Origin: a virus
Virus record (IMG/VR): IMGVR_UViG_3300023096_000002
Location: 1-64,000 of that record
DNA length: 64,000 nt
Reading direction: 5' to 3' (one strand)
The translations under genes were made by a program, and so were the position numbers. Shown here one piece after another: positions 25,776 to 61,848 of the stretch. Under the pieces are notes generated by a model, which was not told the origin of the DNA, did no database searches, and saw nothing but the letters and a program-made list of their open reading frames with translations. Positions within the stretch are counted from its first letter, which is position 1. Each line of letters opens with the position of its first letter.

Positions 25776-27058
25776 GTCGTTTCGTCCTTCTTCTCCGGCG
25801 CTGGTGTCGTGTTGCTCGTTTCCGGCTCCGGAGGACCGCCCTCTTTCGGGAAGCCGATCTGCTCACGCTTTTCAGGTCCGGTAAGGAACGTGACAGGCGT
25901 GAGCTTCAAGGCACGATCCGCACGAGTTTGTGCGAGCGCTTCGATACTGTCATAGTCAAACCGAATGCGGCATCCGGGCGGGCATATGGCAGTGGTGAGG
26001 CCTGCCGCGATTGGATCGAGGTAGGCTGGGATGATGGTGTCCTCGTACAGGGATTGTCGCGAGGCGTTGTAGTTCCCGGCGAACTTGGCAGCGTCCGATG
26101 AACCGATACCGCCGAGAGCGATAGGAATACCAAAAGCTGAGTAGATCATGCGGGTCATATCGTCAAGCGGGACCTTTGAGTGGATGTCACTCATGCCGTT
26201 ATCCAGCGTGTCAACCTTGACCGAAGTATTGGTGAGCAGGAGGACGTTACCGGATTTCTCCGCGCCGACCTCACGATCATCAAACTCCCCCTTGAGTTCT
26301 TCCTCTTGGGGGCCAGTCAACGTCTTTTCCGCAGAGACGATGTATTTCAAGTTCGCGTGACCAGATGCAGTGTCATGCGCCCGTTGGAGCAGCATGGTAA
26401 TGATCTGTGATGGCAAGCCCAAAGCCTGGAGTGGGCTACTGTTCTTGCCTTCAATGTTCACGATCATGCTCAGGGGATTTAGCCCCGGCGTGACGTATTC
26501 GTAGGCGAAGGCGGCGGAGAACTCGTTCTTACGTCCTGGGTCGACCTGACGCCGCGTTTGTAAGCGTTCGAAGTTTTCTCCGGTCCCGTACTCGTATCGA
26601 TCGATTGCACCACTTTGTCCGACAACGGTTTTGAGATATCGCGCGGCAAGCGGGTAGAGTGCTCCGACGTCATTTCGTATGTCCCTTCCGACTTTGACAG
26701 CCCAACGTCCATAGCACGCTTTATTGATCGCGAGCCAGTACTTGAACTGGGCGGCATCCATGGTGTCGCATGGATTATCCAATACCTTCTGGATGGCTTT
26801 GAGAGTGGAGGCGGATGGTGCCGGTACTCCCTTCTCACCCGTCGCCTCGACATACCAGCGCACGCCTTGACAGCTGAGACCGATCTTGTTGATGCAACGG
26901 CTGACAATAGGATGCTTCATCGCTTCGTCAGCAATGATGAACTCCTGATAGCTGAGCACCGGACGAGTGCCAGTCATAATGAACCCGCCCATAAGGCGCT
27001 TGGTTGGATCACTGACCAGACGATTGACGGCGGCTGCTGCTTTACGGAACCAAGCCAT
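25772..27058 (-). CDS. Portal protein, HK97 family
   Basis: 428 residues. HPIVSRCINKIGLSCQGVRWYV (about 49-70) and the PLDDMTRMIYSAFGIPIALGGIGSSDAAKFAGNY region (about 312-345) are typical of the Phage_portal family (PF04860): helix, SFGIP-like loop, then the crown. The C-terminus is Pro/Glu-rich. It shares one base with the terminase stop. Confidence 0.9.
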   Translation of the reverse strand: MAWFRKAAAAVNRLVSDPTKRLMGGFIMTGTRPVLSYQEFIIADEAMKHPIVSRCINKIGLSCQGVRWYVEATGEKGVPAPSASTLKAIQKVLDNPCDTMDAAQFKYWLAINKACYGRWAVKVGRDIRNDVGALYPLAARYLKTVVGQSGAIDRYEYGTGENFERLQTRRQVDPGRKNEFSAAFAYEYVTPGLNPLSMIVNIEGKNSSPLQALGLPSQIITMLLQRAHDTASGHANLKYIVSAEKTLTGPQEEELKGEFDDREVGAEKSGNVLLLTNTSVKVDTLDNGMSDIHSKVPLDDMTRMIYSAFGIPIALGGIGSSDAAKFAGNYNASRQSLYEDTIIPAYLDPIAAGLTTAICPPGCRIRFDYDSIEALAQTRADRALKLTPVTFLTGPEKREQIGFPKEGGPPEPETSNTTPAPEKKDETT

Positions 27059-28263
27059 CAGAGCTGTATCCTTTTCATTCCGACCGCGTTGTTTTGACGA
27101 AGGTCTTCAGTTGCGTATCGGACAGCATCCCAGCCGTGGTTGTCCATGTCTTCAAGGACCGGCAAGGGTTTCTGACTTAGTGGGTCAACCTTCCAGCTAT
27201 AGAGCCGCGCTTCCTCCTGCATGTGGACGCATTCAGGGTCGATGACGATCTCATAGCCTTGCAGCCAGTTCACGCCTGATTTCACGCTGCCCGGACCTTT
27301 AACTGAGCCTCTGACGTTGAACCGCCTCTTATTGAGGAAGTCGATTGTCATTGGCTGCGAGCTGTCAGCGGTGATTGGGTAGCGCCGCACTTCACTGACT
27401 TCATCCATTGCGGATGGCATGTCGTCAAGCGGGATGTGACCGAACATTTCCTGCGCGATGTAAATCTGGCGTGTTCTCTCGAGCACGTAGAGTTTCACCA
27501 AAGCGCTAGGGTCTCGGCTGAAACCAAAGTCCATGCCGAACCGTGGCATGTCATATTCGCTGGTGTTGAGACGGCCGACGCGCCAATTGGTGAAGACGCG
27601 GCTTTCGTTCATCTCATCGTAGTCACCCAACCAGACATGCTTAAAGCGCTTCAGATTGGAACGCTTCATACGCTCCATGTCGGAGGCCATTTCGCCGTGA
27701 TAGAACCAAGGATTATCCTCGATACCGACACGCTGGATGTAAGCATCCTCCGGCGGGAAAGCCCCACGGAAGAAGTCGTCGATTGGGTCTTCAGGACTTA
27801 CCGGGTTCCACGTACACCATATCTCGGAGCCGGGTTTACGGATGGTCGGGACGAGAAGCTCCCATGAACGTGCCTTCACGTTACGAGCTTCTTCGATCCA
27901 AAATATGTCAATATCGTCCAGCGATTTGATGCTGTCGATGTTGCGTTCAAGACCGACGAACGTGAAGCGACTGTCCAAGCGCCGATGGACGATCTCGTTG
28001 TGCGTGACGTTGTAGTCACGCTGCAACCCTAGCTCTTTGATACGGCCTTCAATGGTAGACTTAGCGGAGTCACGAATTGAGTTCTGGAACTGACGTCCGC
28101 AGACAATACGTGTCGGCTTTTGGCTGGAGATGACACTCAGGGCAAGACTTACTGACCGCGACTTAGCGGAACCGCGCCCGCCGAACAGCGCCTTGTAACG
28201 ATAGGGCTGGAAGAGCGGACCGAATTTCTCGCCCAACGAAAGTTGGACAACCCGGTCCGCCAT
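27058..28263 (-). CDS. Terminase large subunit
   Basis: 401 residues, PBSX/Terminase_3 type. The ATPase domain has Walker A GGRGSAKS (28-35) and Walker B IDIFWIEEA (about 118-126), then the WCTWNP coupling motif. The nuclease domain begins with GMDFGFSRDPSA (about 243-254), with further acidic residues at DPECVHMQEE and a final DNHGWDAVRYA. It packages DNA with the small subunit, which is unusually far upstream (about 5 kb). Confidence 0.92.
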   Translation of the reverse strand: MADRVVQLSLGEKFGPLFQPYRYKALFGGRGSAKSRSVSLALSVISSQKPTRIVCGRQFQNSIRDSAKSTIEGRIKELGLQRDYNVTHNEIVHRRLDSRFTFVGLERNIDSIKSLDDIDIFWIEEARNVKARSWELLVPTIRKPGSEIWCTWNPVSPEDPIDDFFRGAFPPEDAYIQRVGIEDNPWFYHGEMASDMERMKRSNLKRFKHVWLGDYDEMNESRVFTNWRVGRLNTSEYDMPRFGMDFGFSRDPSALVKLYVLERTRQIYIAQEMFGHIPLDDMPSAMDEVSEVRRYPITADSSQPMTIDFLNKRRFNVRGSVKGPGSVKSGVNWLQGYEIVIDPECVHMQEEARLYSWKVDPLSQKPLPVLEDMDNHGWDAVRYATEDLRQNNAVGMKRIQL

Positions 28264-30489: not shown

Positions 30490-31464
30490 TTAGTCCGGGT
30501 TCAAAGTCTGGTCCGTGTGACCAAGCGCATACCAGTTGGCGACGTTTGGAATTGAAGACGTCCAACCACTGGAGTTATCATCAGGAGCCCAGAAGGTTCC
30601 TGCGCCGAAGTATCCGGCATAGAACACGCCGCGATCACCAAGCCATTGGGTTGTCACTGCGAGACCGGCAGGCATGTTGCCAGCGCTCCACACTTTGCCA
30701 TCCGTCGAGCGAGCACCAAAAGTCCCAGCTTGGTGTGGTCCAGCATGAGCAAAACCAGTCCGCTCATTTGTCGCAATGTAGTTATAGCTCGCCGGACCAA
30801 CGCCAATCACCCACGTGATCCCATCCAAGCTGTAGAGGAGACCGTTCGTGCCGCGACTGCCGATGTTGAACAGACCGTTCTTTGCAGACCAATCACAGCC
30901 GACGGCATTGGAAGCCGTTGTCGTAACGGCTGTCCACGTTACGCCCTTGTCATCGGAATACTTGGCGCTGGCTCCGCCGACTGCAACGATGCGACCGTCC
31001 CCGGAGCCGAGGGTAGGGGAGAACCCCATGGAGTTAGCCACAAAGCCAAGAGCAGTTTTGGCGGTCCACGTAATGCCGTCCGGTGAAGTGTAAACAGCGC
31101 CGGTGCTTGTCAATGCATAGAACAGATTATGCATCGCCACGAACTTCAGATAATAAGCAGCGAACGGGACCGCGATAGTAGTGAAGGTCACGTTGTCGTC
31201 ATCAGAATAAGCTATCTGATTAGCCGCATAATTCGCAACGATGAACCGACGCAGTGGACCGGAATAGGCAATACCGATCACACTGGAGAATGGCGTACCT
31301 GCGATGTTGACCCAACCACCCGGACCACCGAGCTTAGGATCATCCTCGCAGCGCCACCAGCCAGCGGTGTCGGAAATTGCCAGTGCCTTAAACCGCGCCG
31401 GAAAGGCGTTTCCACTCCGCTTGCGCGTGTAGATGCCTTTCCGCATGTTCATCATTGACGGCAT
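30490..31464 (-). CDS. Beta-propeller tail protein with Asp-box repeats (copy 2)
   Basis: 324 residues. It carries SDDDNVTF, SPDGITW, SDDKGVTW, SLDGITW and STDGKVW motifs. It has the same layout as the next gene: basic N-terminus, FKALA/FKAVA strand, IAYSGPL.RF/VAYSGALTRF. Its start overlaps the stop of the collagen-like fibre by one base. The trio probably makes one adsorption structure. Confidence 0.75.
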   Translation of the reverse strand: MPSMMNMRKGIYTRKRSGNAFPARFKALAISDTAGWWRCEDDPKLGGPGGWVNIAGTPFSSVIGIAYSGPLRRFIVANYAANQIAYSDDDNVTFTTIAVPFAAYYLKFVAMHNLFYALTSTGAVYTSPDGITWTAKTALGFVANSMGFSPTLGSGDGRIVAVGGASAKYSDDKGVTWTAVTTTASNAVGCDWSAKNGLFNIGSRGTNGLLYSLDGITWVIGVGPASYNYIATNERTGFAHAGPHQAGTFGARSTDGKVWSAGNMPAGLAVTTQWLGDRGVFYAGYFGAGTFWAPDDNSSGWTSSIPNVANWYALGHTDQTLNPD

Positions 31465-32669
31465 TAGACCGGCTCCATGTTTCCTGCCAAGTCCCAGATA
31501 TCCGTTCCGACCTTAGTCAGGATGGCAGACGAGAATGCAGCGAGCACAAACGTCTGAGTGGAGGGCTTGTTGATTGTCACGCCAGCGCCTGGAGTGATTG
31601 TCAGATTGCCAGTGTTCGCGTTGATGAACGCAATCGTGGTTCCTTGCGGGAAGGCCAGTGTCGCGTTCGGTGGGACCGTCAGCGTCTTCGCGCTAGCGTT
31701 CGTCATGCGGATGTACTTATTGGTATCCGCAAGCGCGATGGTCTTGGCCGTGGTGGCGTCGACAACGATCGTAACTTCCGGGACAACCAAAAGGCCAGCC
31801 GCATCAGCCGTGAGCTGATTACCGGTGACAGCACTGAGTTTTACATCAGCAGTCAGAGGAGTACCAGCTTCACCAGTGCCGCCTAGATTGATCGTAGCGG
31901 TGTCAGTAATTTCCAGTGGCGGAGCGGGATCGCCCTGCGGACCCTCCGGTCCAGTTGGTCCAGTCGCACCAGTGTTACCGATGAGACCTTGTGGACCCTG
32001 TGGACCTTGCGGGCCGTCTGGACCCTGCGGACCAGCGGGACCATCTGGACCTTGCGGACCGGCAATACCTTGCGGACCTTGAGCACCATCCGCACCAGCC
32101 GGACCAGCCGGACCCTGCGGTCCAGTCGCGCCGGTAGCACCAGCAGGACCAGTCGGACCGACCGGACCTTCAACGCCAGTGAAGAACCCAAAATCCTGCC
32201 AAGTCGGGGTCGGCATGACAGGCTGAAACTGGATGATGTGACGTTCCATGTCACCAGCAAGGGACGGCGGAACGTTCTGGTCAGCACGCAAGTCACCTTC
32301 AGGATTTACGACGTAAACCCATTCAATGCCAGCGGCTTCAATCGCTGCGATCTTGGCATCAGTCAGGTCGCCGTATTCATCCGGAACCAGACCGCCGCCC
32401 GTCGCGCCCTGCGGACCCTGAGCGCCATCAGCGCCGTTGAGCCCGTCAGCTCCAGCAGGACCGACCGGACCGGCAGGACCTTGTGGACCGGCAGGACCTA
32501 CAGCACCCTGCGGACCAGTTGCGCCCTGCGGACCTTGAGCACCGGCAGGACCCTGCGGACCTTGAGGGCCAACTCCACCGCCGCCGCCAGCCATTACAGG
32601 AGCAGCGTTGGTTGGGAGGTCTTGCGCAACGTTAGGAGCGCACGCGTCAATGCATTGTTCATCAGCCAT
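31464..32669 (-). CDS. Collagen-like tail fibre protein
   Basis: 401 residues. Two collagen-like G-X-Y stretches (about 33-92 and 168-250) flank a globular module ([20 protein letters not shown]). The triple-helical stalks would make a long trimeric fibre. The C-terminal 95 residues (from [12 protein letters not shown] to [10 protein letters not shown]) match the end module of the large fibre at 4575-6737. The N-terminus has CIDAC. Confidence 0.8.
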
Positions 32670-32728: not shown

Positions 32729-32756
32729 CCCCAGGAAATCGTGAGAAATCCTGGGG
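32729..32756 (-). terminator. Intrinsic terminator upstream of the fibre genes
   Basis: CCCCAGGA (32729-32736) pairs with TCCTGGGG (32749-32756). On the minus strand it is followed by ATTTTGCTAATTTT. It lies inside the presumed late operon, after the packaging genes and before the collagen-like fibre, so read-through or a new promoter is needed downstream. Confidence 0.65.
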
Positions 32757-32853: not shown

Positions 32854-32931
32854 CTATTCACCGAAGATGTAAACAAATCCGGTTAAACCGAGCGCCGCGA
32901 GGACTAGATACTGACATACGAACCATGTCAT
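32854..32931 (-). CDS. 25-residue single-span membrane peptide
   Basis: The ATG at 32931 overlaps the stop of the HU-like gene (ATGA). The peptide is nearly all hydrophobic (FVCQYLVLAALGLTGFVYIF) with an acidic end. The overlap and the clean membrane span suggest a true small gene, but it has no known relative. Confidence 0.5.
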   Translation of the reverse strand: MTWFVCQYLVLAALGLTGFVYIFGE

Positions 32932-33242
32932 GCGCCCAAACTCCTCGGGACAGTATAATTGTTGGCGGACCGTTGCTCTTCGTCACGTTCATCACCGAAC
33001 CAAAAGGGGTTGAGGATAGTTCGCAACTTAGCATCCTGCTCAAAGTCAACGTACTTGCGCTCAGGGATATCCTCGTAGATACCCTTGATTATGTTCAAGC
33101 GACTTTGAGCGCAGACCGTCCGGACCGTAAACGTTCCAAGACCGTAGACGCGACTTGTTCCAGTTGTAGCCAATTCAAGCTGCACCTGATCCCATGTCTT
33201 CTTGCTGTTCCCAGCGAAATTTGCACGCCGTGGAGCAGCCAT
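32928..33242 (-). CDS. HU/IHF-like protein
   Basis: 104 residues. The stretch GLGTFTVRTVCAQSRLNIIKG followed by IPERKYVDFEQDAKLRTIL follows the HU consensus (G.GtF.vr...aR...NP.Tge.i.Ip....v.F.ag..Lk..l). However, the usual ARxGRNPxTG arm is changed (AQSRLNIIKG), lacking the proline. It lies right after terminase small subunit, so it may bend DNA at the packaging site. Confidence 0.65.
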   Translation of the reverse strand: MAAPRRANFAGNSKKTWDQVQLELATTGTSRVYGLGTFTVRTVCAQSRLNIIKGIYEDIPERKYVDFEQDAKLRTILNPFWFGDERDEEQRSANNYTVPRSLGA

Positions 33243-33799
33243 TATGCGTCCTCAGTCTTGACCTGTTCAACGAACTCAGCAACGGGGTCCGCTTCCGGCT
33301 TCGGCAGGACGGTCCCAGTCGGCAGCAAGGTGAACTGAACGATCGTGTTCCCAAGGGCAGCGCCTCCAGGACCAGTGTGCTCATTGACCAGCTTTTCGTT
33401 GTAGTCCGGATTGATGCGGGCCGCGATCCATTTCCGGGTGTCAATGCGGAGGGCCGCACGACGAATGCTGGAGGTCTTGATCATTGGACCGTTGACACCC
33501 ATAGTGATGTCATCAGTGCAATCATCCGCAATCTCAATCATCTCGTCAACATAGCTCTCAACGCGAGCCATCTTGGCGATCTTGTATTTCTCCTTGAAAT
33601 CCGGATACTTGTGCAGCCAAGCGTAGATCGTGTTCTTGGTCGCAGGCATTCCCGGATAACGCATAGCCTGATCCATTGTCAGACCAGCCGCAATCAGCTC
33701 ACAGAACTTGTCGCCGAGCTCAACGCTCCAGGAGGCATACTGTTCTGGATTATCAATAAAGGACTGCACGTGATCCGGCAGTTCATTTTCGTCAGACAC
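33242..33799 (-). CDS. Terminase small subunit
   Basis: 185 residues from GTG 33799, chosen because AAGGAG lies six bases upstream; an in-frame start at 33883 or 33877 would add a basic N-terminus. CELIAAGLTMDQAMRYPGMPATKNTIYAWLHKYPDFKEKY is an HTH of the kind seen in phage small terminases, followed by EMIEIADDCTDD and the RIDTRKWIAARINP helix. It recognises DNA for packaging. Confidence 0.82.
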   Translation of the reverse strand: MSDENELPDHVQSFIDNPEQYASWSVELGDKFCELIAAGLTMDQAMRYPGMPATKNTIYAWLHKYPDFKEKYKIAKMARVESYVDEMIEIADDCTDDITMGVNGPMIKTSSIRRAALRIDTRKWIAARINPDYNEKLVNEHTGPGGAALGNTIVQFTLLPTGTVLPKPEADPVAEFVEQVKTEDA

Positions 33800-34271
33800 G
33801 GCGTACTCCTTTCTGAAATTGTCGCGCTTGCAGCCATCTGTTGATGAGCCATGCGCGTGCCTTTTCTCTTTAAGCATTCTCACGGATGCGACAGAACCGA
33901 AGGTGCCGAGCTGAGGAGTGTATCAGCGCTCTGGTGGATTTCGTCTCGGGGAAGCCAAGGTTAAGCTGTGCACGCTTTGACCGAGACTTGGGATCAACAG
34001 GTCAGGAGATCAACCCCGCACTGAACGATCTTACCCCGAGGAGTGTTGGGCGGCGAGGCTTGGAGGATCTCGAGCCGCCCGAAATGAGATCGCCCCGGAA
34101 GGCGAGACCATAAGGAACTCTTCCGGGGCGATCGTTGAGAGCTCAATCAGGTCTCGAGATGCGCGGCACTTCATCTCAGGGAGTTCCCGAGAAGAGTGCT
34201 GCACTGCGTGGACTTAAACCTTAACCCGGAGGGGGTTTTATCCAGCGAAACCAATGACGTATGCCCTACCC
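33800..34271 (-). promoter_or_regulatory. Structured non-coding leader between NusG-like gene and terminase
   Basis: About 470 nt with no credible gene. Inverted repeats on the leftward RNA: 34088-34100 with 34121-34133 (13 bp, GATCGCCCCGGAA); 34048-34054 with 34074-34080 (GGGCGGC); 34156-34161 with 34172-34177 (GAGATG); 33943-33949 with 33981-33987 (GTCTCGG), enclosing AAGC...GCTT; and AACCC/GGGTT at 34223-34237. GATCAAC occurs twice near 34000. It could be an antitermination leader, a packaging site, or a structured 5' UTR. Confidence 0.6.
34088..34133 (-). repeat. 13-bp perfect hairpin in the late leader
   Basis: GATCGCCCCGGAA and TTCCGGGGCGATC enclose a 20-nt loop. On the minus strand TCATTTC follows, a poor U-run. 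It is the strongest structure in the leader and could act as a conditional terminator. Confidence 0.6.
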
Positions 34272-34916
34272 TCATGCATACGCGACTTGCGAGGCGATTG
34301 CAAGAGGTTTCTTCGGCGCCATCGTCAGAAAACTTAACGGGACTTTGAGCGGCAAATCCTTCCCAAAAAGGCTGACCTGGACGGTAGCGAGGACTCCATC
34401 AATAGCCAAGACCGGAACCTCATTCCCCTTCCATTCACCGCGAACAATCATCACGCGACTGCCCTTCTTGATCGACTTGTCGATGATTGGCGCGTGAGGC
34501 ATGAGGTCGTTTTCAAGGATACGGAGCTCCGTGATAAGCGCTTCCGGAATGCGCACCGGGACGTCATGATTGCAGAGCACATTATAATATCCGCGCTGCC
34601 CGCGTATGTGATACCATTGCTGATCCGTACCGAGCATCTTGACGAAGATGTATCCTCCCAGCATCGGCCTGCGCACGACGACTTCTTGCTCTTTCGGCGG
34701 GAGTTTGCGCCTCCCTCGCGGGCGCGTAATATATTGGTCCATCGGGCAGTAGGCGACGATCTCCAGGGATGGGTCCTGTTGCGTCATCATCTCACCCAAA
34801 AGGTTGATTGCTTGGGTGACCTCCACCTGGAGCTTACCAAAAGTGGAGACGCAGAACCATTGCGGAGTTGCGTGTATGGGGTATAATCCGGTATTAATCC
34901 AGCTGAGTGTGCTCAC
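34272..34916 (-). CDS. NusG/RfaH-like transcription factor
   Basis: 214 residues. GTG 34916 overlaps the nuclease stop and has GGAGGG eight bases upstream. Residues about 18-130 fit the NGN domain: QWFCVSTFGKLQVEV, a long loop, RRPMLGGYIFVKM, then the GYYNVLCNHDVPVRIP segment. Residues about 150-205 are a KOW domain (KKGSRVMIVRGEWKGNEVPVLAI). NusG-type proteins bind RNA polymerase to aid elongation, and RfaH-like paralogues act only on operons with a recruiting element. Here it heads the virion operon and precedes a structured leader, suggesting late antitermination. Confidence 0.85.
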   Translation of the reverse strand: MSTLSWINTGLYPIHATPQWFCVSTFGKLQVEVTQAINLLGEMMTQQDPSLEIVAYCPMDQYITRPRGRRKLPPKEQEVVVRRPMLGGYIFVKMLGTDQQWYHIRGQRGYYNVLCNHDVPVRIPEALITELRILENDLMPHAPIIDKSIKKGSRVMIVRGEWKGNEVPVLAIDGVLATVQVSLFGKDLPLKVPLSFLTMAPKKPLAIASQVAYA

Positions 34917-35359
34917 TTTAGTGTCCCTCCAAAAGCGTTGATGATCAGTCTCTGCAAGTCTTCATTGATATGCTCGGGTCCGAACTTGAAGCAGGAGTTC
35001 AGTTCGAAGCCCAATTCCCAGTCCTCGTCGCTGAGGCGCTTACCATCGAAGGCGTAGCTATCCCAGATATTTTCTGGACCCGGACGCTTTACACCTGTGA
35101 TCACCCATGATACTCCACCGGCGCGGGCGAACTTATAATGCCATACGATCTGAGATGGGCGCACTTCTTCCGGGAATATACGACCTTTGCGAACCTTTCC
35201 GACCTTGTACTCCAACGGGAGCAGGCGATGGCTGGATGGGCACATGAGCTGAACGTCGGGATAACCGATACCGCTGCCTATTCCGGGTTCGTAGAGTTCG
35301 CTCCAGCCTTGCCATGCTTTGAGAGTGAACCGTTTGTAGACGGTTTCTGGGCGTGCCAT
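34913..35359 (-). CDS. PD-(D/E)XK nuclease-like protein (VRR-NUC/resolvase type)
   Basis: 148 residues from ATG 35359, with CAGGA nine bases upstream. GIGYPDVQLMCPSSHRLLPLEYKVGK supplies the PD...ExK catalytic pattern, and EEVRPSQIVWHYKFARAGG resembles the Q-containing helix and following strand of VRR-NUC and resolvase-like nucleases. It is translationally coupled to the NusG-like gene. Possible roles are resolving DNA junctions before packaging or attacking host DNA. Confidence 0.75.
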   Translation of the reverse strand: MARPETVYKRFTLKAWQGWSELYEPGIGSGIGYPDVQLMCPSSHRLLPLEYKVGKVRKGRIFPEEVRPSQIVWHYKFARAGGVSWVITGVKRPGPENIWDSYAFDGKRLSDEDWELGFELNSCFKFGPEHINEDLQRLIINAFGGTLK

Positions 35360-35400
35360 GATATTCCTGTGCCGTGGGATCGCATTCGAGTTCGCTCTTG

Positions 35401-35429
35401 CGAATAGCATATTTGCGATGTGAATGCAA
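35401..35429 (-). promoter_or_regulatory. Leftward promoter for the nuclease-NusG operon
   Basis: Read on the minus strand: TTGCAT (35429-35424), 17-nt spacer, TATTCG (35406-35401). It lies about 40 bases before the nuclease ATG. Sigma70-like spacing; score moderate. Its -35 box is 9 bases from that of the rightward promoter. Confidence 0.5.
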
Positions 35430-35438
35430 GGTTATTCG

Positions 35439-35467
35439 TTGTCCTGGGTTCTTGGTTGTGGTATGGT
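35439..35467 (+). promoter_or_regulatory. Rightward promoter for a small RNA
   Basis: TTGTCC (35439-35444), 17-nt spacer, TATGGT (35462-35467), followed by GGGAGCA. Initiation would be near 35474. It is back-to-back with the leftward promoter. Confidence 0.5.
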
Positions 35468-35473
35468 GGGAGC

Positions 35474-35647
35474 AATACGTTGATCAGAGCCTCGCCCGAT
35501 TGGGACGCAAGGCCAGTGTCCTAGAACCGGTAATAGCCGTGCAGCGTATTCGAGGGGACGAGCGGTCTCAATCGTGAGAGCCAGCCGCGCAAGGAAGTCC
35601 GGCATACCCCGAGAGTAGCCATTCTCTCGGGGCTTTATCCGTTTTTC
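35474..35647 (+). ncRNA. Candidate small RNA with own promoter and terminator
   Basis: About 170 nt between a good promoter and an intrinsic terminator, with no credible reading frame. It contains GGTCTC...GAGAGCC and other small stems. It is the only rightward transcription unit in the middle of the window and lies head to head with the NusG-like operon. It resembles no tRNA: no T-loop GTTCGA was found. Confidence 0.45.
35607..35647 (+). terminator. Terminator of the small-RNA unit
   Basis: CCCCGAGAG (35607-35615) pairs with CTCTCGGGG (35624-35632), then CTTTATCCGTTTTTC. A perfect 9-bp stem with a U-rich end on the plus strand. Confidence 0.7.
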
Positions 35648-36167
35648 TTGGTACAATTGCCGTGGGTTTAGAAGCATCAACGACGGTCGGTGGGATTTGG
35701 ATCGCGTCGCTGTGGTGATTGCTCATGGTAGAGGTGTCGTGGTCCTGGGTTCTTGGGGCAAAGTCGGTTTGTAATTGGTGATGGTCCGTGGATCGTTTTA
35801 ATCGGTAAAATTCGGTCGCGCTTAGGGAGGGGGAGGGGCGATCGCCCTACGAGGTCGCCGCCGTCAGTCAGGGGGGGTGCATGGTTAACAAATCGTTCAG
35901 TCAAATGGTTAATGAGAGGTGTGCGTTAACCATATCTCTTAATGAACTGTTAACTATCAGGGGGCTTGAGTATCATTTAGCTAAAACTTTACACAACTGT
36001 TAGCTGTTCATTAACCTTGAACTATACTGCAGGATGCTATTGAAGTAGTTTGAACTACTTGAACAATACTTATCAACACTGCTATCCCATTGTAAACGTT
36101 AGGTTATTTGTCCGTTGACGTTGGCATATGCTGCATAACATGCATTATGGAACTATTTGATAAAGTT
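35648..36167. other. AT-rich gene-free region with inverted repeats
   Basis: No supported gene. GTTAAC/TTAACC words recur at least six times between 35880 and 36020. TTAATGAAC (35939-35947) is inverted at 36006-36014. A palindrome AAGTAGTT-TG-AACTACTT lies at 36043-36060. The word GTCCTGGGTTCTTGG at 35441-35455 recurs near 35741. The layout suits operators or an origin. Confidence 0.5.
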
Positions 36168-36464
36168 TTAATCTAATTTTAATGGTTGAACAGTGTTACT
36201 CCAGCCATGCAAGCTCACTGTCAGGCGGTAGTTTCCGGGTGCTATGAGGGTACGGTCCATGGACTGGTGCGCTCTGGCGGGCTTCTGTGTGCCTTGTAGG
36301 GGTGATCGGAAGGCTTGCTGGACAGGGGATTGGCGACGGTCCTCGCGCAAAGAATAATTACCGTTTCTCGTTGAGAGCAGTGGTTGTTTACACGCTACAG
36401 GTTGCATGCCTTCGTTAGCATTGACTAATAGATAACCAAAAAAGGCGATATCTTCTGCGGACAT
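36168..36464 (-). CDS. Doubtful hypothetical protein
   Basis: A 98-residue frame without a ribosome site. The C-terminal part (DRTLIAPGNYRLTVSLHGW) reads like protein, the middle less so. It lies in a gene-poor region and may not be expressed. Confidence 0.3.
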   Translation of the reverse strand: MSAEDIAFFGYLLVNANEGMQPVACKQPLLSTRNGNYSLREDRRQSPVQQAFRSPLQGTQKPARAHQSMDRTLIAPGNYRLTVSLHGWSNTVQPLKLD

Positions 36465-36517
36465 GGTTGTATTTGCCGCATGGCTGCAACCGTTCAGGTT
36501 TTATTTATATTACTACC

Positions 36518-36652
36518 TTACTTACCTCCCCCGTGAAGGAATTTATTATAATTAGATATTTCTATACTTTGGGTAAGGTTAAACCCAATAAAAACTTTGA
36601 ACGCGTGTACTTGGCACTGAGTACTTGCAACTAACAGTATACTTGAGAGCAT
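36518..36652 (-). CDS. Small secreted peptide candidate
   Basis: 44 residues from ATG 36652. The N-terminus MLSSILLVASTQCQVHA looks like a signal peptide with a cleavage site after VHA, giving a mature peptide of about 27 residues. The ribosome site is weak (GGGG at -12). It belongs to a local group of small exported proteins. Confidence 0.4.
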   Translation of the reverse strand: MLSSILLVASTQCQVHAFKVFIGFNLTQSIEISNYNKFLHGGGK

Positions 36653-36859
36653 GATTTTAGCCCCAACTCTCGCCTTTTTTGGACCCAAGGACCACGGACA
36701 ATGAACCCATAACCCAAAACCCCAAACCATACCCCTAACCACAAAGCAAAACGCGCTAGGGAGCCCATTAAAGCCCCGCCAGCGCGTTCCACATACCCTA
36801 CCCTAGTAGCCCCTTACCCAACGCCAAAGAACGCGCCAGCGGCCTCCTATGGCAGCGTC

Positions 36860-37075
36860 CTAATATTCACCAACAATCATGTATACCGCACTACAAAACC
36901 TCCCGTCATGCCAGTCCAGCGCTACACCATTCCAGCAATACTGTTCGCTTAGGCCATAGGCAAAGGACCGCGCTCCCTCGCTCCGGTATAGTTCAACCGT
37001 GCTCCAAGCCCCGCCAGCATATGAGCAAGCGACTGCTAATGTAATTGCACACCATTTTACTAGTCTATTAGTCAT
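36860..37075 (-). CDS. Small periplasmic or membrane-anchored protein
   Basis: 71 residues. A lysine-containing N-terminus is followed by a hydrophobic run (about 9-23, CAITLAVACSYAGGA), then a short Cys-containing mature part (YCWNG ... RFCSAVY). GGGG lies six bases before the ATG. Export and a disulphide are likely; function unknown, perhaps superinfection exclusion. Confidence 0.6.
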   Translation of the reverse strand: MTNRLVKWCAITLAVACSYAGGAWSTVELYRSEGARSFAYGLSEQYCWNGVALDWHDGRFCSAVYMIVGEY

Positions 37076-37145
37076 AATTTACCCCAAAGTTAAAACGAGT
37101 TTAAAATTTTACACACAACCGTGAGCAAGTGAACCCTAATACAAC

Positions 37146-37520
37146 CTATACGTCATCACCCCATTGCCGCCGGACCGCCCTCAGCCTCTCCGTTTGCAGC
37201 GCCTTCCGCTCCTTCGGTAACCACACTTTGCTAATGAATATAGTTAACTTCTCGTTAACATCAATTTCCGCATCACAATCGCAGGCCTGCAACTGTTCAA
37301 GCAAAGGTTGCAGCATATCCTCCCGTGCAACCGTTATCACTGGGTTAACCCATTTAACGTCCACTCCCAAGGTATAGCCCGCCAGCGTTACCGCTTTCTT
37401 AATACGTTGCGTTCCGCTCCGCCGCGTTGCGCCGGGTTCATGCCGCCTACCGCTCATGGGCATGCGGGCAATCTTGTCGCTCCTAACCCGACGGGTGGAG
37501 TTTTCACTACGCTTTGTCAT
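37146..37520 (-). CDS. Hypothetical basic protein
   Basis: 124 residues with a very basic N-terminal third (TKRSENSTRRVRSDKIARMPMSGRR), then a mixed alpha/beta domain (INEKLTIFISKVWLPKERKAL). ATG overlaps the upstream stop by 14 nt, with GGGAAG upstream. The basic tail suggests nucleic-acid contact. Confidence 0.65.
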   Translation of the reverse strand: MTKRSENSTRRVRSDKIARMPMSGRRHEPGATRRSGTQRIKKAVTLAGYTLGVDVKWVNPVITVAREDMLQPLLEQLQACDCDAEIDVNEKLTIFISKVWLPKERKALQTERLRAVRRQWGDDV

Positions 37521-37707
37521 TTCTATACTTCCCGTTCATTATTTTATGCACCGCTTTATTGTACTGACTGCGACTTATATTGCCGTTGCGGTATTCCGTA
37601 GTTAGCTCCGCATGAGTTTTACATCGCTCAAGTATCGCTGCATACTCTTCAACTGTCGCATCATTTACTTGCTGTTTCTTTTTCACAGTAACCCTCTTCA
37701 ACGCCAA
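37507..37707 (-). CDS. Small basic helical protein
   Basis: 66 residues, Lys/Glu-rich and helical (VEEYAAILERCKTHAELTTEYRNGNISRSQYNKAVHKIM). A stem-loop lies just before its start. No family recognised. Confidence 0.65.
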   Translation of the reverse strand: MALKRVTVKKKQQVNDATVEEYAAILERCKTHAELTTEYRNGNISRSQYNKAVHKIMNGKYRNDKA

Positions 37708-37708
37708 T

Positions 37709-37734
37709 AGCGGGCCAGTATAAACCAGCCCGCT
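37709..37734. repeat. Stem-loop before a small gene
   Basis: AGCGGGC (37709-37715) pairs with GCCCGCT (37728-37734). No U-run on either side. It uses the GCCCGC word seen in other repeats of this region. Confidence 0.45.
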
Positions 37735-37756
37735 CCCAACAACAACACGCTACACT

Positions 37757-37963
37757 TCAACGGTATGCTTCACTCCGCAAGCAAGTCAACAACCGCCAAT
37801 CCGCCGGTATGACCGCGCCCTTGAACGCTGCAGTACAATCATCACCGCTCCCGGCAATATATACTTCACCTGTCCAAGTAACGGCAAACAAGTCAACATT
37901 GGTATGCAACGGGGTCGCCCCGACCAGCCCTGCCATGAGCGCGATAGTTAAAGTTTTAATCAT
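37757..37963 (-). CDS. Small secreted protein
   Basis: 68 residues from ATG 37963 with GGAG eight bases upstream. MIKTLTIALMAGLVGATPLH is a clear signal peptide. The mature part has two cysteines (DDC, LTC) likely to form a disulphide. Probably periplasmic; role unknown. Confidence 0.65.
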   Translation of the reverse strand: MIKTLTIALMAGLVGATPLHTNVDLFAVTWTGEVYIAGSGDDCTAAFKGAVIPADWRLLTCLRSEAYR

Positions 37964-38231
37964 TGGTAATGCTCCAGCTAAAATGCCGCTCGCCTTTTGG
38001 TCCAAGCGTGTAACCCCTGTTATACCCCTGCTCCCGCACGAACGCCTTAGCTTCCGCCACGGTTGCACACTCCGGACTTGCATACAAATCCGCGTATGGT
38101 GCCGACGGGTGGCTTTCCAGACCGTAATACCCCGCAACCTCCGCAAGCCATGCCCTATAGCTGGCGTCCGTTACCGGCTCCGGCGGGCGCTTTGGGTAGG
38201 CGTCCACATACCGCACAAAAGCCTTAACCAT
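37956..38231 (-). CDS. Hypothetical protein
   Basis: 91 residues from ATG 38231, overlapping the upstream stop by 8 nt. AYRAWLAEVAGYYGLESHP and TVAEAKAFVREQGY suggest a small alpha/beta fold. Overlaps the secreted protein gene by 8 nt. Confidence 0.65.
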   Translation of the reverse strand: MVKAFVRYVDAYPKRPPEPVTDASYRAWLAEVAGYYGLESHPSAPYADLYASPECATVAEAKAFVREQGYNRGYTLGPKGERHFSWSITND

Positions 38232-39010: not shown

Positions 39011-39497
39011 ATCAGTGAACCCAGCGGCCTAATGCCGTGAGAGCAATATGCGCCTGATCCGTTAAGAAAACAATAACAAACTCATCGCAATTGTATATAT
39101 CGTTGACTTATTCAGCATAGCCCCTATTCCCGCCATACAAGCCCGCCAGCGGACGTTTGGGTTTTCCGGTACTACCACCCGAAACTTCCCGCCGTCGCGA
39201 TCTCGGTATTTTTTGGTTGTAAATGCCTTCCAAGTCCTGCAACCTATGGGACGTTATGCCCGTATCCCGCCATACAAGCCCAAGGGCGCGTTCCTCCTGT
39301 TTTCCATACCGTAGGCCATCCACACCCGACGAAGTCCGCTGGCGGGCTCCTGTATAGCCTGTTTTCCGGCGGGAGTGCGCCTGTATACCGCTGGCGGCAC
39401 GGCTTGCCCTACCAAAGCCCGGTATGCGCCGCGCCACAAACGGCAAAAGGCGGGCTACAGGAGCCCGCCTAAGCGTTTTAAAGGTATGGTTGGCGGT
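39011..39497. repeat. Repeat-rich gene-free region
   Basis: No gene supported. CCCGCCATACAAGCCC occurs at 39129-39144 and 39266-39281. An inverted relative (CCGCTGGCGGGCTCCTGTATAGCC) is at 39336-39359, and another partial copy is near 39390. CTGTTTTCC also recurs. The copies at 39129 and 40439 stay alike for about 85 bp, so this is a dispersed element, not a chance word. Confidence 0.6.
39441..39470 (-). terminator. Terminator of the DUF2786-like gene
   Basis: AGGCGGGCT (39448-39456) pairs with AGCCCGCCT (39462-39470). On the minus strand TTTTGCCG follows. A perfect 9-bp stem. Confidence 0.7.
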
Positions 39498-56499: not shown

Positions 56500-56563
56500 G
56501 TGCAACTTGAGCCAAAATGTGGACGGAAGGCCCGCCACAAGCTCATCAAAGGAAAACCCCAAC

Positions 56564-57427
56564 ATGGTTAAATCTCTTACCGCTGCTTCCAAGGCTGAAC
56601 CCAAGGAAGTTGTCGTAACCGAACAAGATGCGAACGCTCTCGCATTGGCAGCTGAAGCGGAACTTTTCGACACTGGTGCTTCCACCGGCTTTGAAAACGT
56701 TACCGCCAAAGACCTGCTCATTCCGCGCATCACCATTCTGCAGGGCTTGAGCCCTCAGGTCACACGCGGCAAGCCGGAATTCAATCCGGACCTGCGTCCA
56801 GGCATGATCTATGACGTCGGCCTGACGGAAGTCTTCGAAGAAGCCATCCACGTTATTCCGGTTCACTTCTTCAAGCAGTGGCTTGAATGGGCTCCCCGGA
56901 ACACTGGCAAGGGTCTCGTCGCTGTTCATGACAACGGCAGCATCCTGGATCAGACGGAAAAGGACGCCAAGAACAAGGACGTCCTGCCGAACGGGAACTA
57001 CGTTTCCGAAACTGCGCAATTCTATGTCCTCAACCTGTCGGCACGGAACCGCAAGTCGTTCATCGCCATGACCAGCACGCAGCTCAAGAAGAGCCGGAGC
57101 TGGCTCACTCGCGCCCAGAACGTCATGATCCCTCGCGCTGATGGCACAGAGTTCCAGGCTCCGCTGTTCTACCATTCTTACATCCTCTCCACCGTGCCGG
57201 AAAGCAATGCCGAAGGCGCATGGGATGGCTGGAAGATCGAGACCGGTCCGAAGCTCACCGAGCTTGACAACTGGAAGCACATTCACAAGCTCATCCTCGA
57301 GTTCCGCGAAAGCATCGACAAGGGCGAGGTCCAGTCGGACAAGTCGTCGCTTGAAGATGAAGTTTCCGGCGGTCGTGGCGGCGGCGGTCGCAGCGAAGGT
57401 CAGGCTGATACCGGGCAGGCAATGTAA
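56564..57427 (+). CDS. Conserved-type phage protein, possible ssDNA-binding role
   Basis: 287 residues from ATG 56564 (AAAGGAAAA upstream). The core (LLIPRITILQGLSPQVTRGKPEFNPDLRPGMIYD, later FYVLNLSARNRKSFIAMTSTQLKKSRSWLTRAQN) is of a type seen in phage replication clusters. The end is glycine-rich and then acidic/polar, as in single-strand-binding proteins. First gene of the replication block. The binding role is inference from tail composition and position only. Confidence 0.6.
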   Translation: MVKSLTAASKAEPKEVVVTEQDANALALAAEAELFDTGASTGFENVTAKDLLIPRITILQGLSPQVTRGKPEFNPDLRPGMIYDVGLTEVFEEAIHVIPVHFFKQWLEWAPRNTGKGLVAVHDNGSILDQTEKDAKNKDVLPNGNYVSETAQFYVLNLSARNRKSFIAMTSTQLKKSRSWLTRAQNVMIPRADGTEFQAPLFYHSYILSTVPESNAEGAWDGWKIETGPKLTELDNWKHIHKLILEFRESIDKGEVQSDKSSLEDEVSGGRGGGGRSEGQADTGQAM

Positions 57428-58077
57428 TGAGCCTGATCCCCGGACAAGCCTCAGACGAAGAGCTGTTCGATGGTGCGGGAGCTTCGGCTTCCGCACCAGT
57501 CATCGAGCGGCTGGTCGCCATGTGCAAGGAATGCGCCGAGCTTGAGGAAACTATTGAGAGCCTCAACGAAGCGCTGAAAGCCAATAGCGGCCGTTATCAT
57601 CACCTGAAAACCAAGGCGCTCGTTGAGCTCATGGCGGAAGCTCAGGTGCCTGAATTTACCCATCTCGATCCCATGAGCAATCTTCCTGGGGTTAAGGTCA
57701 AGATCGCAGACTTCGTTTCCGGTAGCTTGCCGAAGGAAGAATACGATCGCGAGATTGCCATCCAGAAGCTGGTGGAAGCTGGCGGCGAAAAGCTGCTCAC
57801 TGCGACCATCACAATGGACTTCCCCAAGTCTCTCCGCGATAAAGCTCTCGCCCTTTTTGGTGAACTCTTCAAGCAGTGGGACACGGAAGCCGACGTCGAA
57901 TTCAAGGAAGGCGTCCACGCGGCGACCCTCCAGGCGTTCGTCAGGGAAAAGCTCCGCAAGGGTGAAGAAGTTCCCTTCGAGGAGCTCGGCATTCATGTCG
58001 GGAAGGTCGCAAAAATCACACCAATCGGCAAGGATGGCAAGCGCCTGCGCAAGTCAACCTCTGCTACCGAGGAGTAA
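57427..58077 (+). CDS. Conserved-type phage protein
   Basis: 216 residues, start overlapping the previous stop (TAATG). N-terminal coiled coil (about 25-70), then a domain with GVKVKIADFVSGSLPKEEYDREIAIQKLVEAGG and VHAATLQAFVREKLRKGEEVPFEELGIHVGKVAKI. This last motif recurs in phage replication regions but has no known function. Pairs with the preceding gene. Confidence 0.65.
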   Translation: MSLIPGQASDEELFDGAGASASAPVIERLVAMCKECAELEETIESLNEALKANSGRYHHLKTKALVELMAEAQVPEFTHLDPMSNLPGVKVKIADFVSGSLPKEEYDREIAIQKLVEAGGEKLLTATITMDFPKSLRDKALALFGELFKQWDTEADVEFKEGVHAATLQAFVREKLRKGEEVPFEELGIHVGKVAKITPIGKDGKRLRKSTSATEE

Positions 58078-60457: not shown

Positions 60458-60662
60458 AGAATGGAAAGTTATCACCGTAGATAACTTCGCCCGCGAGAGC
60501 CATGCTGACCGTCTAATCTTTCAGAACGTTCATAGCGAGGAGTTTGCTAAGTTCATTGCTGATCAGCTTCAGGCTAAGTTCGGTGGTGAGCAGGCTTGGG
60601 ATTTCTACACTCAACGCACGATGAGCGCTCGTCTGTGGCGCGGCATGGAGGACTTGATTTGA
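60444..60662 (+). CDS. Hypothetical small protein
   Basis: 72 residues from ATG 60444, overlapping the previous gene by 14 nt; ATG 60429 would add five. Acidic, helical (EEFAKFIADQLQAKFGGEQAWDF). Unknown. Confidence 0.6.
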   Translation: MQSSEEWKVITVDNFARESHADRLIFQNVHSEEFAKFIADQLQAKFGGEQAWDFYTQRTMSARLWRGMEDLI

Positions 60663-61132
60663 CACACGCCCGCGTCGTAATCCTTCTCGACCTTGAAGGA
60701 ACGGTCTGCAACAATGGCCATCGCGTGGAGCTGTATCAGGCTCAGGAGTGGGATGAGTATGCAGCGTTCTGCAAGAATGATATCCCGTACACGGACGTCA
60801 TGGACCTGCTGAACAATCTCTGCGAAGATACTGACAATGTTGACGTCATTGTTATCAGCGATCGCAGCGATGAATATCTCATGGCGACCATTGATTGGTT
60901 TGTCAAGTGGGGCGAGTTCGATGTGAAGAACTTTTACATGCGCTCCCGCTATGACATGCCCAAGACCAAGGAGCCTATCCTCAAGCTGGAACTATTTGAG
61001 AAAATGAAGGTGGCGGAAGGTTATCCGGCTGGCACCGTCTTCATCGCCCTGGACGACAAGGATGACGTCTGTGAGGCATATCGTAACGCTGGCATTTCAT
61101 GCTGGCAAGTTCGGAATGGAGTAATATCATGA
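60659..61132 (+). CDS. HAD-family phosphatase, PNK 3'-phosphatase-like
   Basis: 157 residues from TTG 60659, with GGAGG seven bases upstream deciding the start. HAD motifs: I LLDLEGTV (Asp11, but Glu13 where Asp is normal), II VISDRSD (Ser67), III around KTKEPILK, IV IALDDKDD. The layout resembles the phosphatase half of T4 polynucleotide kinase, which repairs 3' ends. The Asp-to-Glu change at the acid/base position is unusual and may slow or alter catalysis. Confidence 0.75.
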   Translation: MTHARVVILLDLEGTVCNNGHRVELYQAQEWDEYAAFCKNDIPYTDVMDLLNNLCEDTDNVDVIVISDRSDEYLMATIDWFVKWGEFDVKNFYMRSRYDMPKTKEPILKLELFEKMKVAEGYPAGTVFIALDDKDDVCEAYRNAGISCWQVRNGVIS

Positions 61133-61848
61133 ATAAGAACGGTCAACAGGTTTGGATCGTTACCGGCTCATCGAGTGGTCTCGGAGCGGCAATCTCCGAT
61201 GTACTGACTAAAGCGTGCGGTTTCCACGTTGAAAAATGGGACCTGGACAACGGCATGGACGTCACCAAAGCGGAAGATGTCTATATGTTCATGGATGCTT
61301 ACGTGGAGCACGGCGTCAAGATCGATGGCATTGTGAATTGCGCTGGCATCGCGAAGTTGGCATGGTTCAAGGACATCACTCAGGAAGACTACGACGCGGT
61401 CTTTGATGTCAATTGCCGGTCTATCTTCAACATGGTTCAATCGGCCATCTTCAACGGAGTGTTCGACTACCGCCCGACGGTCGTCAACGTCATCAGTACG
61501 GCCAGTCGGTTGCCGATGACAAACAGCTTCACCTATTGCGCGTCCAAGGCGGCGGCGGAAATGATGACCCGCCAGATGGCACGGGAGCTCATCAAGACCC
61601 ACGGCATCACCGTTTTTGGTATCGCTCCGAACAAGCTCAAGAAGACCGGCATGACCGATCAAATCGATGAGCGAGTGCAGGAATTGCGCGGCTGGTCGGC
61701 TGAGGAAGCCAAGGGCTATCAGGAAGCGGGCAACGGGAACCTGGAATATACCGACCCGAACTCCGTCGCTGCCGTGCTCGGCTTCATGCTCAGCAAGCCA
61801 GAGTTCCACAAGTTCCAGAACGGCGCTATCATCCCGATGGGCGTCTGA
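61129..61848 (+). CDS. Short-chain dehydrogenase/reductase
   Basis: 239 residues from ATG 61129 (ATGA overlap). The Rossmann motif TGSSSGLG (12-19), NCAG (70-73), a catalytic Ser near 123-126, Tyr136 and Lys140 in YCASK are all present, so it should be an active NAD(P)-dependent oxidoreductase. An SDR within a phage nucleotide block is unusual; substrate unknown, possibly a sugar or a modified base precursor. Confidence 0.88.
   Translation: MNKNGQQVWIVTGSSSGLGAAISDVLTKACGFHVEKWDLDNGMDVTKAEDVYMFMDAYVEHGVKIDGIVNCAGIAKLAWFKDITQEDYDAVFDVNCRSIFNMVQSAIFNGVFDYRPTVVNVISTASRLPMTNSFTYCASKAAAEMMTRQMARELIKTHGITVFGIAPNKLKKTGMTDQIDERVQELRGWSAEEAKGYQEAGNGNLEYTDPNSVAAVLGFMLSKPEFHKFQNGAIIPMGV

What the first reader, a model, noticed from the sequence alone, without database searches (positions are those of the whole stretch)
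34272..34916. Phage-encoded NusG/RfaH-like factor at the head of the virion operon
The sequence shows an NGN-like domain and a KOW domain in a gene that opens the leftward operon of about 32 kb. RfaH-type paralogues are known to be operon-specific. A phage copy placed upstream of a structured leader and an internal terminator (32729-32756) suggests a late-gene antitermination system unlike lambda Q or N. That link is inference.
Basis: partly seen in the sequence, partly recalled or inferred. Interest (0 to 1): 0.75.

Follow-up and report, generated by a model that had tools for sequence, protein, structure and literature searches.

The report
Phage NusG gene beside late genes
This virus carries its own version of NusG, a protein that keeps RNA polymerase going, right beside its virion genes; unrelated phages put it in the same place, often with a conserved RNA and a transcription stop signal, which suggests a little-studied way for phages to switch on late genes.

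Summary
The gene at 34272-34916(-) is a genuine NusG-superfamily protein: NGN above Pfam's cut-off, confident AlphaFold2 model with NGN and KOW barrel, PDB matches all NusG/RfaH/Spt5. It is not RfaH, LoaP, UpxY or housekeeping NusG by curated cut-offs. It is the second gene of its unit; a 388-nt structured leader separates it from terS. Two sister phages lack gene and leader together and carry a sigma70-like promoter before terS that the window lacks.

The position recurs. All ten named phage records whose flanks I checked, plus one viral contig, carry phage NusG just before the terminase genes, across three terminase families. In rhizobial phages the leader holds a covarying RNA absent from Rfam. 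A search by that motif alone returned a NusG gene 94-161 nt upstream in 112 of 115 evaluable loci, a terminator downstream in 97 of 111, and terminase next in 79 of 80.

Best reading: an operon-specific NusG paralogue that lets RNA polymerase read into the virion genes, LoaP-like in mechanism, Q-like in position. For the window itself this is inference: its leader lacks the rhizobial RNA and a standard terminator. The protein family is already annotated 'antiterminator'; its system context is the new part.

The parts
34272..34916 (-). Phage NusG paralogue (NGN + KOW), 214 aa, GTG start
33884..34271 (-). Noncoding structured leader between nusG and terS, 388 nt
   Evidence: RNA fold z=-3.55, 1 of 100 shuffles as stable; absent in sister phages G001/G002
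34088..34133 (-). Perfect 14-bp inverted repeat (GATCGCCCCGGAAG / CTTCCGGGGCGATC) in the leader; no U-tract after it
34913..35410 (-). Gene before nusG, its stop overlapping the nusG start; in sister phages it abuts terS directly. Looks like a PD-(D/E)XK nuclease by eye only
   Evidence: no Pfam match
35436..35455 (-). 20-nt direct repeat copy 1 ahead of the unit (candidate promoter or operator element)
   Evidence: 2 copies in window, 0.01 expected; function inferred
35737..35756 (-). 20-nt direct repeat copy 2
33242..33883 (-). Small terminase subunit, first gene after the leader
   Evidence: PF20901 3.9e-26, phrog_1482 4.3e-29
32729..32756 (-).
   Evidence: sequence; not listed by scans
27058..28263 (-). 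Large terminase subunit of the virion operon (Terminase_3)
   Evidence: PF04466 3e-34

Best explanation
The gene encodes an operon-specific NusG paralogue. It is made from the short unit that begins near 35.4 kb. It is loaded onto host RNA polymerase as the polymerase transcribes the structured leader between nusG and terS, and it lets that polymerase read through the leader and later stop or pause sites of the roughly 30-kb leftward virion operon. Shown: NusG-superfamily protein; structured leader directly downstream; gene and leader present or absent together among sister phages; same gene position before terminase in diverse phages; in rhizobial phages, near-obligate linkage to a conserved RNA and an intrinsic terminator. 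Inferred: that the protein binds the leader, that it antiterminates, and that the window's leader (which lacks the rhizobial RNA) plays the same part.
For: Fold and family. Sister phages G001/G002 (TerL 67/63% identical): upstream gene to terS is 42/58 nt, with no nusG and no leader; each has TTG-N20-TATARY ending 26-28 nt before terS, the window has none anywhere. Recurrent position: Synechococcus Yong-L2-223/Ssp-JY38, Nostoc Nsp-JY10, Agrobacterium Rivra, Mesorhizobium P1, Sinorhizobium phi3/phi2LM21, Rhizobium PPF1, Microcystis yong2, Bradyrhizobium ppBjS10J-1, viral contig L055, across three TerL families. Leader RNA: 112/115 evaluable motif loci have NusG 94-161 nt upstream; 39 two-sided compensatory cells against 12.4 shuffled; terminator within 90 nt in 97/111 against 55/2220 control; terminase next in 79/80 (92). 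Precedent: LoaP needs a leader RNA hairpin and reads through an intrinsic terminator (PMC12691694).
Against: The window leader has no match to the rhizobial RNA and no standard intrinsic terminator. The 32.7-kb terminator is weak. The window protein has no close relative in IMG/VR and sits on a long, unplaced branch, so covariation in its leader could not be tested. Sister phages do without the gene. The 112 loci are mostly related rhizobial prophages, not independent events. No transcription data exist here.
Confidence: 0.65

Rival explanations
1. General elongation or anti-Rho factor: the phage NusG competes with host NusG on all RNA polymerase, weakens NusG-Rho termination and so shields phage DNA at large. 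The leader is unrelated or only a UTR.
For: The protein belongs to no operon-specific subfamily by cut-off; the window leader has no recognisable terminator or shared RNA; the Synechococcus phage gap (123 nt) is not unusually structured (z=0.20).
Against: Constant placement before terminase in diverse phages and near-obligate linkage to one RNA element plus terminator in rhizobial phages are not expected of a general factor.
Confidence: 0.17
2. RfaH-like coupling as the main role: the protein is recruited at a DNA pause element and mainly brings ribosomes to late mRNA, antitermination being secondary.
For: RfaH is the best-scoring NCBIfam model for the window protein (44 bits).
Against: Far below the RfaH cut-off of 144.5; no ops-like site on the coding strand of the leader; KOW modelled as a barrel, not RfaH's helical hairpin, though AF2 may not show fold switching.
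Confidence: 0.08
3. Passenger: nusG was acquired next to terS by chance in this phage and the structured leader serves another purpose, such as a processing site, small RNA or packaging signal near terS.
For: Sister phages thrive without it and seem to use a promoter before terS; the leader sits next to terS, where packaging sites can lie (general knowledge).
Against: The same position in diverse phages with three terminase families makes chance placement unlikely; the window has lost or lacks the sister-type promoter.
Confidence: 0.1

Closest known systems
LoaP (Bacillus NusG paralogue) with the dfn leader (PMC12691694)
   Same: NusG paralogue acting on a long operon; leader with an RNA hairpin and an intrinsic terminator, an anatomy met in the rhizobial phages and only partly in the window
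   Different: Phage late operon instead of antibiotic operons; different RNA element; window protein far below the LoaP cut-off (34.2 vs 125 bits)
PHROG 6386 'transcription antiterminator' and GenBank 'NusG' genes of rhizobial phages
   Same: Same protein family and same place before terminase
   Different: The window protein is a long-branch member; its leader lacks the rhizobial RNA
RfaH
   Same: NusG paralogue, fold match to RfaH bound to polymerase
   Different: Below cut-off; no ops-like site in the leader; KOW modelled as a barrel
Lambda Q and the GTA antiterminator GafZ (PMC11150451)
   Same: Regulator gene at the early/late boundary (Q); long virion operon as target
   Different: Q and GafZ load at promoter DNA and are not NusG proteins; this is an NGN-KOW protein followed by a structured leader

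Membership tests
NusG/Spt5 superfamily | NGN domain | tested here: met
   PF02357 40.5 bits vs cut-off 22.2; fold
NusG/Spt5 superfamily | KOW domain | tested here: met
   Sequence match below cut-off (12.7 vs 22.3 bits); five-stranded barrel in the model
NusG/Spt5 superfamily | Binding to the RNA polymerase clamp | not testable with these tools
   Conserved NGN positions such as W19, P83, Y88 are kept; no binding assay
PHROG 6386 phage antiterminators | Profile match | tested here: met
   4.4e-18; Synechococcus, rhizobial, Microcystis, Bradyrhizobium and L055 proteins match too
RfaH | RfaH family score over the curated cut-off | tested here: not met
   44 vs 144.5 bits
RfaH | ops element in the target leader | tested here: not met
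   No match with up to 2 mismatches on the minus strand of 33884-34271; a phage-specific element could differ
RfaH | KOW that switches between helix and barrel | tested here: inconclusive
   Barrel in the AF2 model; AF2 may miss a second fold
LoaP | LoaP family score over the curated cut-off | tested here: not met
   34.2 vs 125 bits
LoaP | Leader with RNA hairpin plus intrinsic terminator | tested here: inconclusive
   Window: structured leader, no standard terminator. Rhizobial relatives: RNA element plus terminator in 97 of 111
UpxY | UpxY family score over the curated cut-off | tested here: not met
   35 vs 100 bits
Lambda Q-type antiterminators | Regulator gene immediately upstream of the late genes | tested here: met
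   Gene order nusG-leader-terS
Lambda Q-type antiterminators | Homology to or fold of Q | tested here: not met
   Fold matches listed are NusG/RfaH/Spt5
Rhizobial phage NusG leader RNA (described here) | Match to covariance model R1 in the leader | tested here: not met
   Best score near the gene 1.1 bits, E=2.8, filters off

The most novel reading that the evidence does not exclude
Phages have repeatedly recruited NusG paralogues as late-gene switches addressed by a leader RNA: a third kind of phage antitermination beside N/nut and Q/QBE, mobile as a nusG-leader cassette between packaging modules, of which the window carries a divergent version with its own leader RNA.
Probability: 0.5. Interest if true: 0.78.

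Novelty: new variant of a known kind. Interest (0 to 1): 0.62.

Why it matters
Late-gene control is known for few phage groups. A NusG paralogue with a dedicated leader RNA would give a testable mechanism for many rhizobial prophages and some cyanophages, extend LoaP-style RNA-addressed NusG action to viruses, and turn a bare database label ('transcription antiterminator') into a system with a named RNA, terminator and target operon.

Tried and rejected
Rfam on the window and on eight NusG-phage loci: nothing. Rhizobial RNA model in the window: only a weak hit at 39382-39491(+), E=0.029, on the other strand and far from the gene, taken as chance. Several 'phage' records with NusG (MT837051, Microcystis 'phage' MaAM05, Salmonella contig AFYI01000006) are bacterial nusG loci by their neighbours and were set aside; other unannotated fragments and Listeria or Acinetobacter records were not followed. 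Two megaphage NusGs (LR745206, LR756501) group with cellular NusG; their gene context was not examined. ops-like sites exceed chance in the window (33 vs 17.9) but none lies in the leader on the coding strand. A tree could not place the window protein (branch 2.93). No TTGACA/TATAAT-like consensus was visible in the conserved rhizobial gaps. A late promoter like that of the sister phages was sought in the window and not found; weak promoter-like hits inside nusG and terS were not pursued.

Full report
WHAT IS THERE. The window is bases 1-64000 of a 70,893-base virus record. ORF 34272-34916 on the minus strand (214 aa, GTG) matches the Pfam NGN model above its cut-off; KOW scores below its cut-off. 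It matches PHROG 6386, 'transcription antiterminator'. An AlphaFold2 model built with 36 sequences has mean pLDDT 87.9, an NGN fold and a five-stranded KOW barrel. Foldseek against the PDB lists NusG, RfaH and Spt5 chains, best E 1.9e-12, among them NusG of the lambda N antitermination complex (6gov) and RfaH bound to polymerase (8phk). Against NCBIfam it scores far below the cut-offs for RfaH, NusG, UpxY and LoaP, so it is a NusG-superfamily member of no named subfamily. It is the only NGN match in its genome record.

GENE ORDER. The gene is not the first of its unit. ORF 34913-35410 precedes it and its stop overlaps the nusG start. Upstream of that, a simple codon-usage call finds almost nothing coding up to 38.2 kb, and this stretch holds two copies of a 20-nt repeat (35436-35455, 35737-35756) where 0.01 matches are expected. 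Downstream comes a 388-nt gap with RNA folding z=-3.55 and 1 of 100 shuffles as stable, with a perfect 14-bp inverted repeat, then terS, further virion genes, terL and portal.

THE SISTER PHAGES. Two long contigs have the closest terminases: G001 (75,899 bases, TerL 67%) and G002 (75,275 bases, TerL 63%). Neither has an NGN match anywhere. In both, the homologue of the gene upstream of window nusG (38-45% identical) lies directly before terS, with 42 and 58 nt between. So nusG and the long structured leader are present together or absent together. Both sister gaps contain TTG-N20-TATARY ending 26-28 nt before the terS start; the window has no such match. From the shuffle rates in those calls, a match in so short a stretch would be expected well under once in a thousand for each phage (my estimate). 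Read together: the sister phages seem to start late transcription at a promoter before terS, and the window phage has nusG plus leader there instead. The direction of change (gain or loss) is not known.

THE POSITION RECURS. Searches from several phage NusGs gave these named phages whose neighbours I then read: Synechococcus phages Yong-L2-223 and Ssp-JY38, where nusG is the first gene of the rightward virion operon; Nostoc phage Nsp-JY10; Agrobacterium Rivra; Mesorhizobium vB_MseS-P1; Sinorhizobium phi3LM21 and phi2LM21; Rhizobium PPF1; Microcystis vB_MweS-yong2; Bradyrhizobium ppBjS10J-1. That is ten records and nine distinct phages, the two Synechococcus records having identical NusG. Viral contig L055 shows the same. 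In every one the gene lies just before the terminase genes; for Rivra, PPF1 and yong2 this uses the start of the record as the continuation of its end. Their large terminases belong to at least three Pfam groups: GpA, TerL_ATPase and Terminase_3. The relatives 7-7-1 and Milano have no NGN match. Records with a bacterial secE-nusG-rplK order were excluded, and a few unannotated hits were not followed.

A CONSERVED LEADER RNA. The gaps of the rhizobial-type phages share an element first seen. I scanned the collections with its 3' part alone (TCARGGNNNGTGCKAMAGCTATG), a pattern that contains nothing of NusG: 100 viral stretches and 26 genome contigs, 24 of the latter Rhizobiales. Of 126 places, 112 have a NusG ORF ending 94-161 nt upstream on the same strand. 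Of the other 14, 11 have too little upstream sequence held, and three look like chance (L108, Prevotella L205, Megamonas L216), giving 112 of 115 evaluable. Within 90 nt downstream 97 of 111 have an intrinsic-terminator-like hairpin, against 55 of 2220 random stretches of the same loci. Where at least 2 kb downstream is held, 79 of 80 encode TerS or TerL. On 46 non-redundant leaders two stems covary: 39 cells changed on both sides against 12.4 in shuffles, 0 of 500 shuffles as high, 96% of cells paired against 24-58% for slid structures. Related sequences can inflate the shuffle control, as the tool warns; the slide control points the same way. Rfam has no such family. The same RNA accompanies both GpA-type and TerL_ATPase-type terminases, so nusG plus leader appears to travel with different packaging modules (inference). 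No promoter-like consensus is visible between nusG and the element, so the leader is probably reached by transcription from upstream (inference).

THE WINDOW'S OWN LEADER. It does not match the rhizobial RNA model, even with filters off, and neither do the Synechococcus, Microcystis, Bradyrhizobium or L055 loci. It has no standard intrinsic terminator. So the window shares the protein family and the gene position with these phages, and has a structured leader of its own, but the RNA-plus-terminator part of the argument is borrowed from relatives.

MECHANISM. Most likely the protein is an operon-specific elongation factor loaded over the leader that carries RNA polymerase into the virion operon. 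The best precedent is LoaP, which needs a leader RNA hairpin and overcomes an intrinsic terminator by antagonising NusA (PMC12691694). The position recalls lambda Q (general knowledge). GafZ of the Caulobacter gene transfer agent is another virion-operon antiterminator in alphaproteobacteria (PMC11150451), but Q and GafZ load at promoter DNA and are not NusG proteins. I give 0.65 to late-operon antitermination by this protein, 0.17 to a general elongation or anti-Rho role, 0.10 to a passenger gene and 0.08 to RfaH-like coupling as the main role.

NOVELTY. The protein family is annotated already (PHROG 6386; several GenBank records). A 2025 paper notes the antiterminator gene in all phiLM21-like prophages, at the end of the early region with an HNH gene (PMC12429752). 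A 2020 paper mentions rfaH-like genes on prophages (PMC7593976). The held library has no paper with 'phage-encoded NusG' or 'phage NusG', but most subscription papers are not held. What I did not find described is the recurrent pre-terminase position, the leader RNA, and the sister-phage contrast. Hence 'new variant of a known kind'.

Noticed in passing
G000 63668-66984 (L103:3668-6984), partly beyond the window: DNA polymerase III alpha split over two adjacent ORFs: the first carries PHP plus the start of the alpha NTPase domain, the second continues at the next profile position. Split gene, frameshift or intervening element not resolved.
   Followed up: partly
window 35410-38220: Almost 3 kb with little coding signal between early genes and the virion unit, holding two 20-nt direct repeats and a 16-nt imperfect inverted repeat at 35939-36014; possible control region or origin.
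   Followed up: partly
window 56507-58077 (+): Two genes like gp34 and gp33 of phage Pam3 (PF23977, PF23984).
   Followed up: partly
window 31464-32669 (-): Collagen-like repeat protein matching tail fibre families.
   Followed up: no
window 60596-61848 (+): Polynucleotide kinase-like gene followed by a FabG-like reductase gene.
   Followed up: no
window 4575-6737 (-): 720-aa protein of the virion operon with a carbohydrate-binding module 5/12 match.
   Followed up: no
window 32928-33242 (-): Weak HU/IHF-like DNA-binding protein gene right after terS, below Pfam's cut-off; similar proteins follow terS in G002.
   Followed up: no
L091 (Nostoc phage Nsp-JY10): Its NusG, leader RNA and terminator are of the rhizobial type, so the stated cyanobacterial host may deserve a second look.
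   Followed up: no
L007, L099, L100: Records in the phage collection that look bacterial by their ribosomal or secE-nusG-rplK gene order.
   Followed up: partly
L161, L187, L189, L157, L106: A few leaders keep the RNA element but seem to lack the terminator right after it.
   Followed up: no
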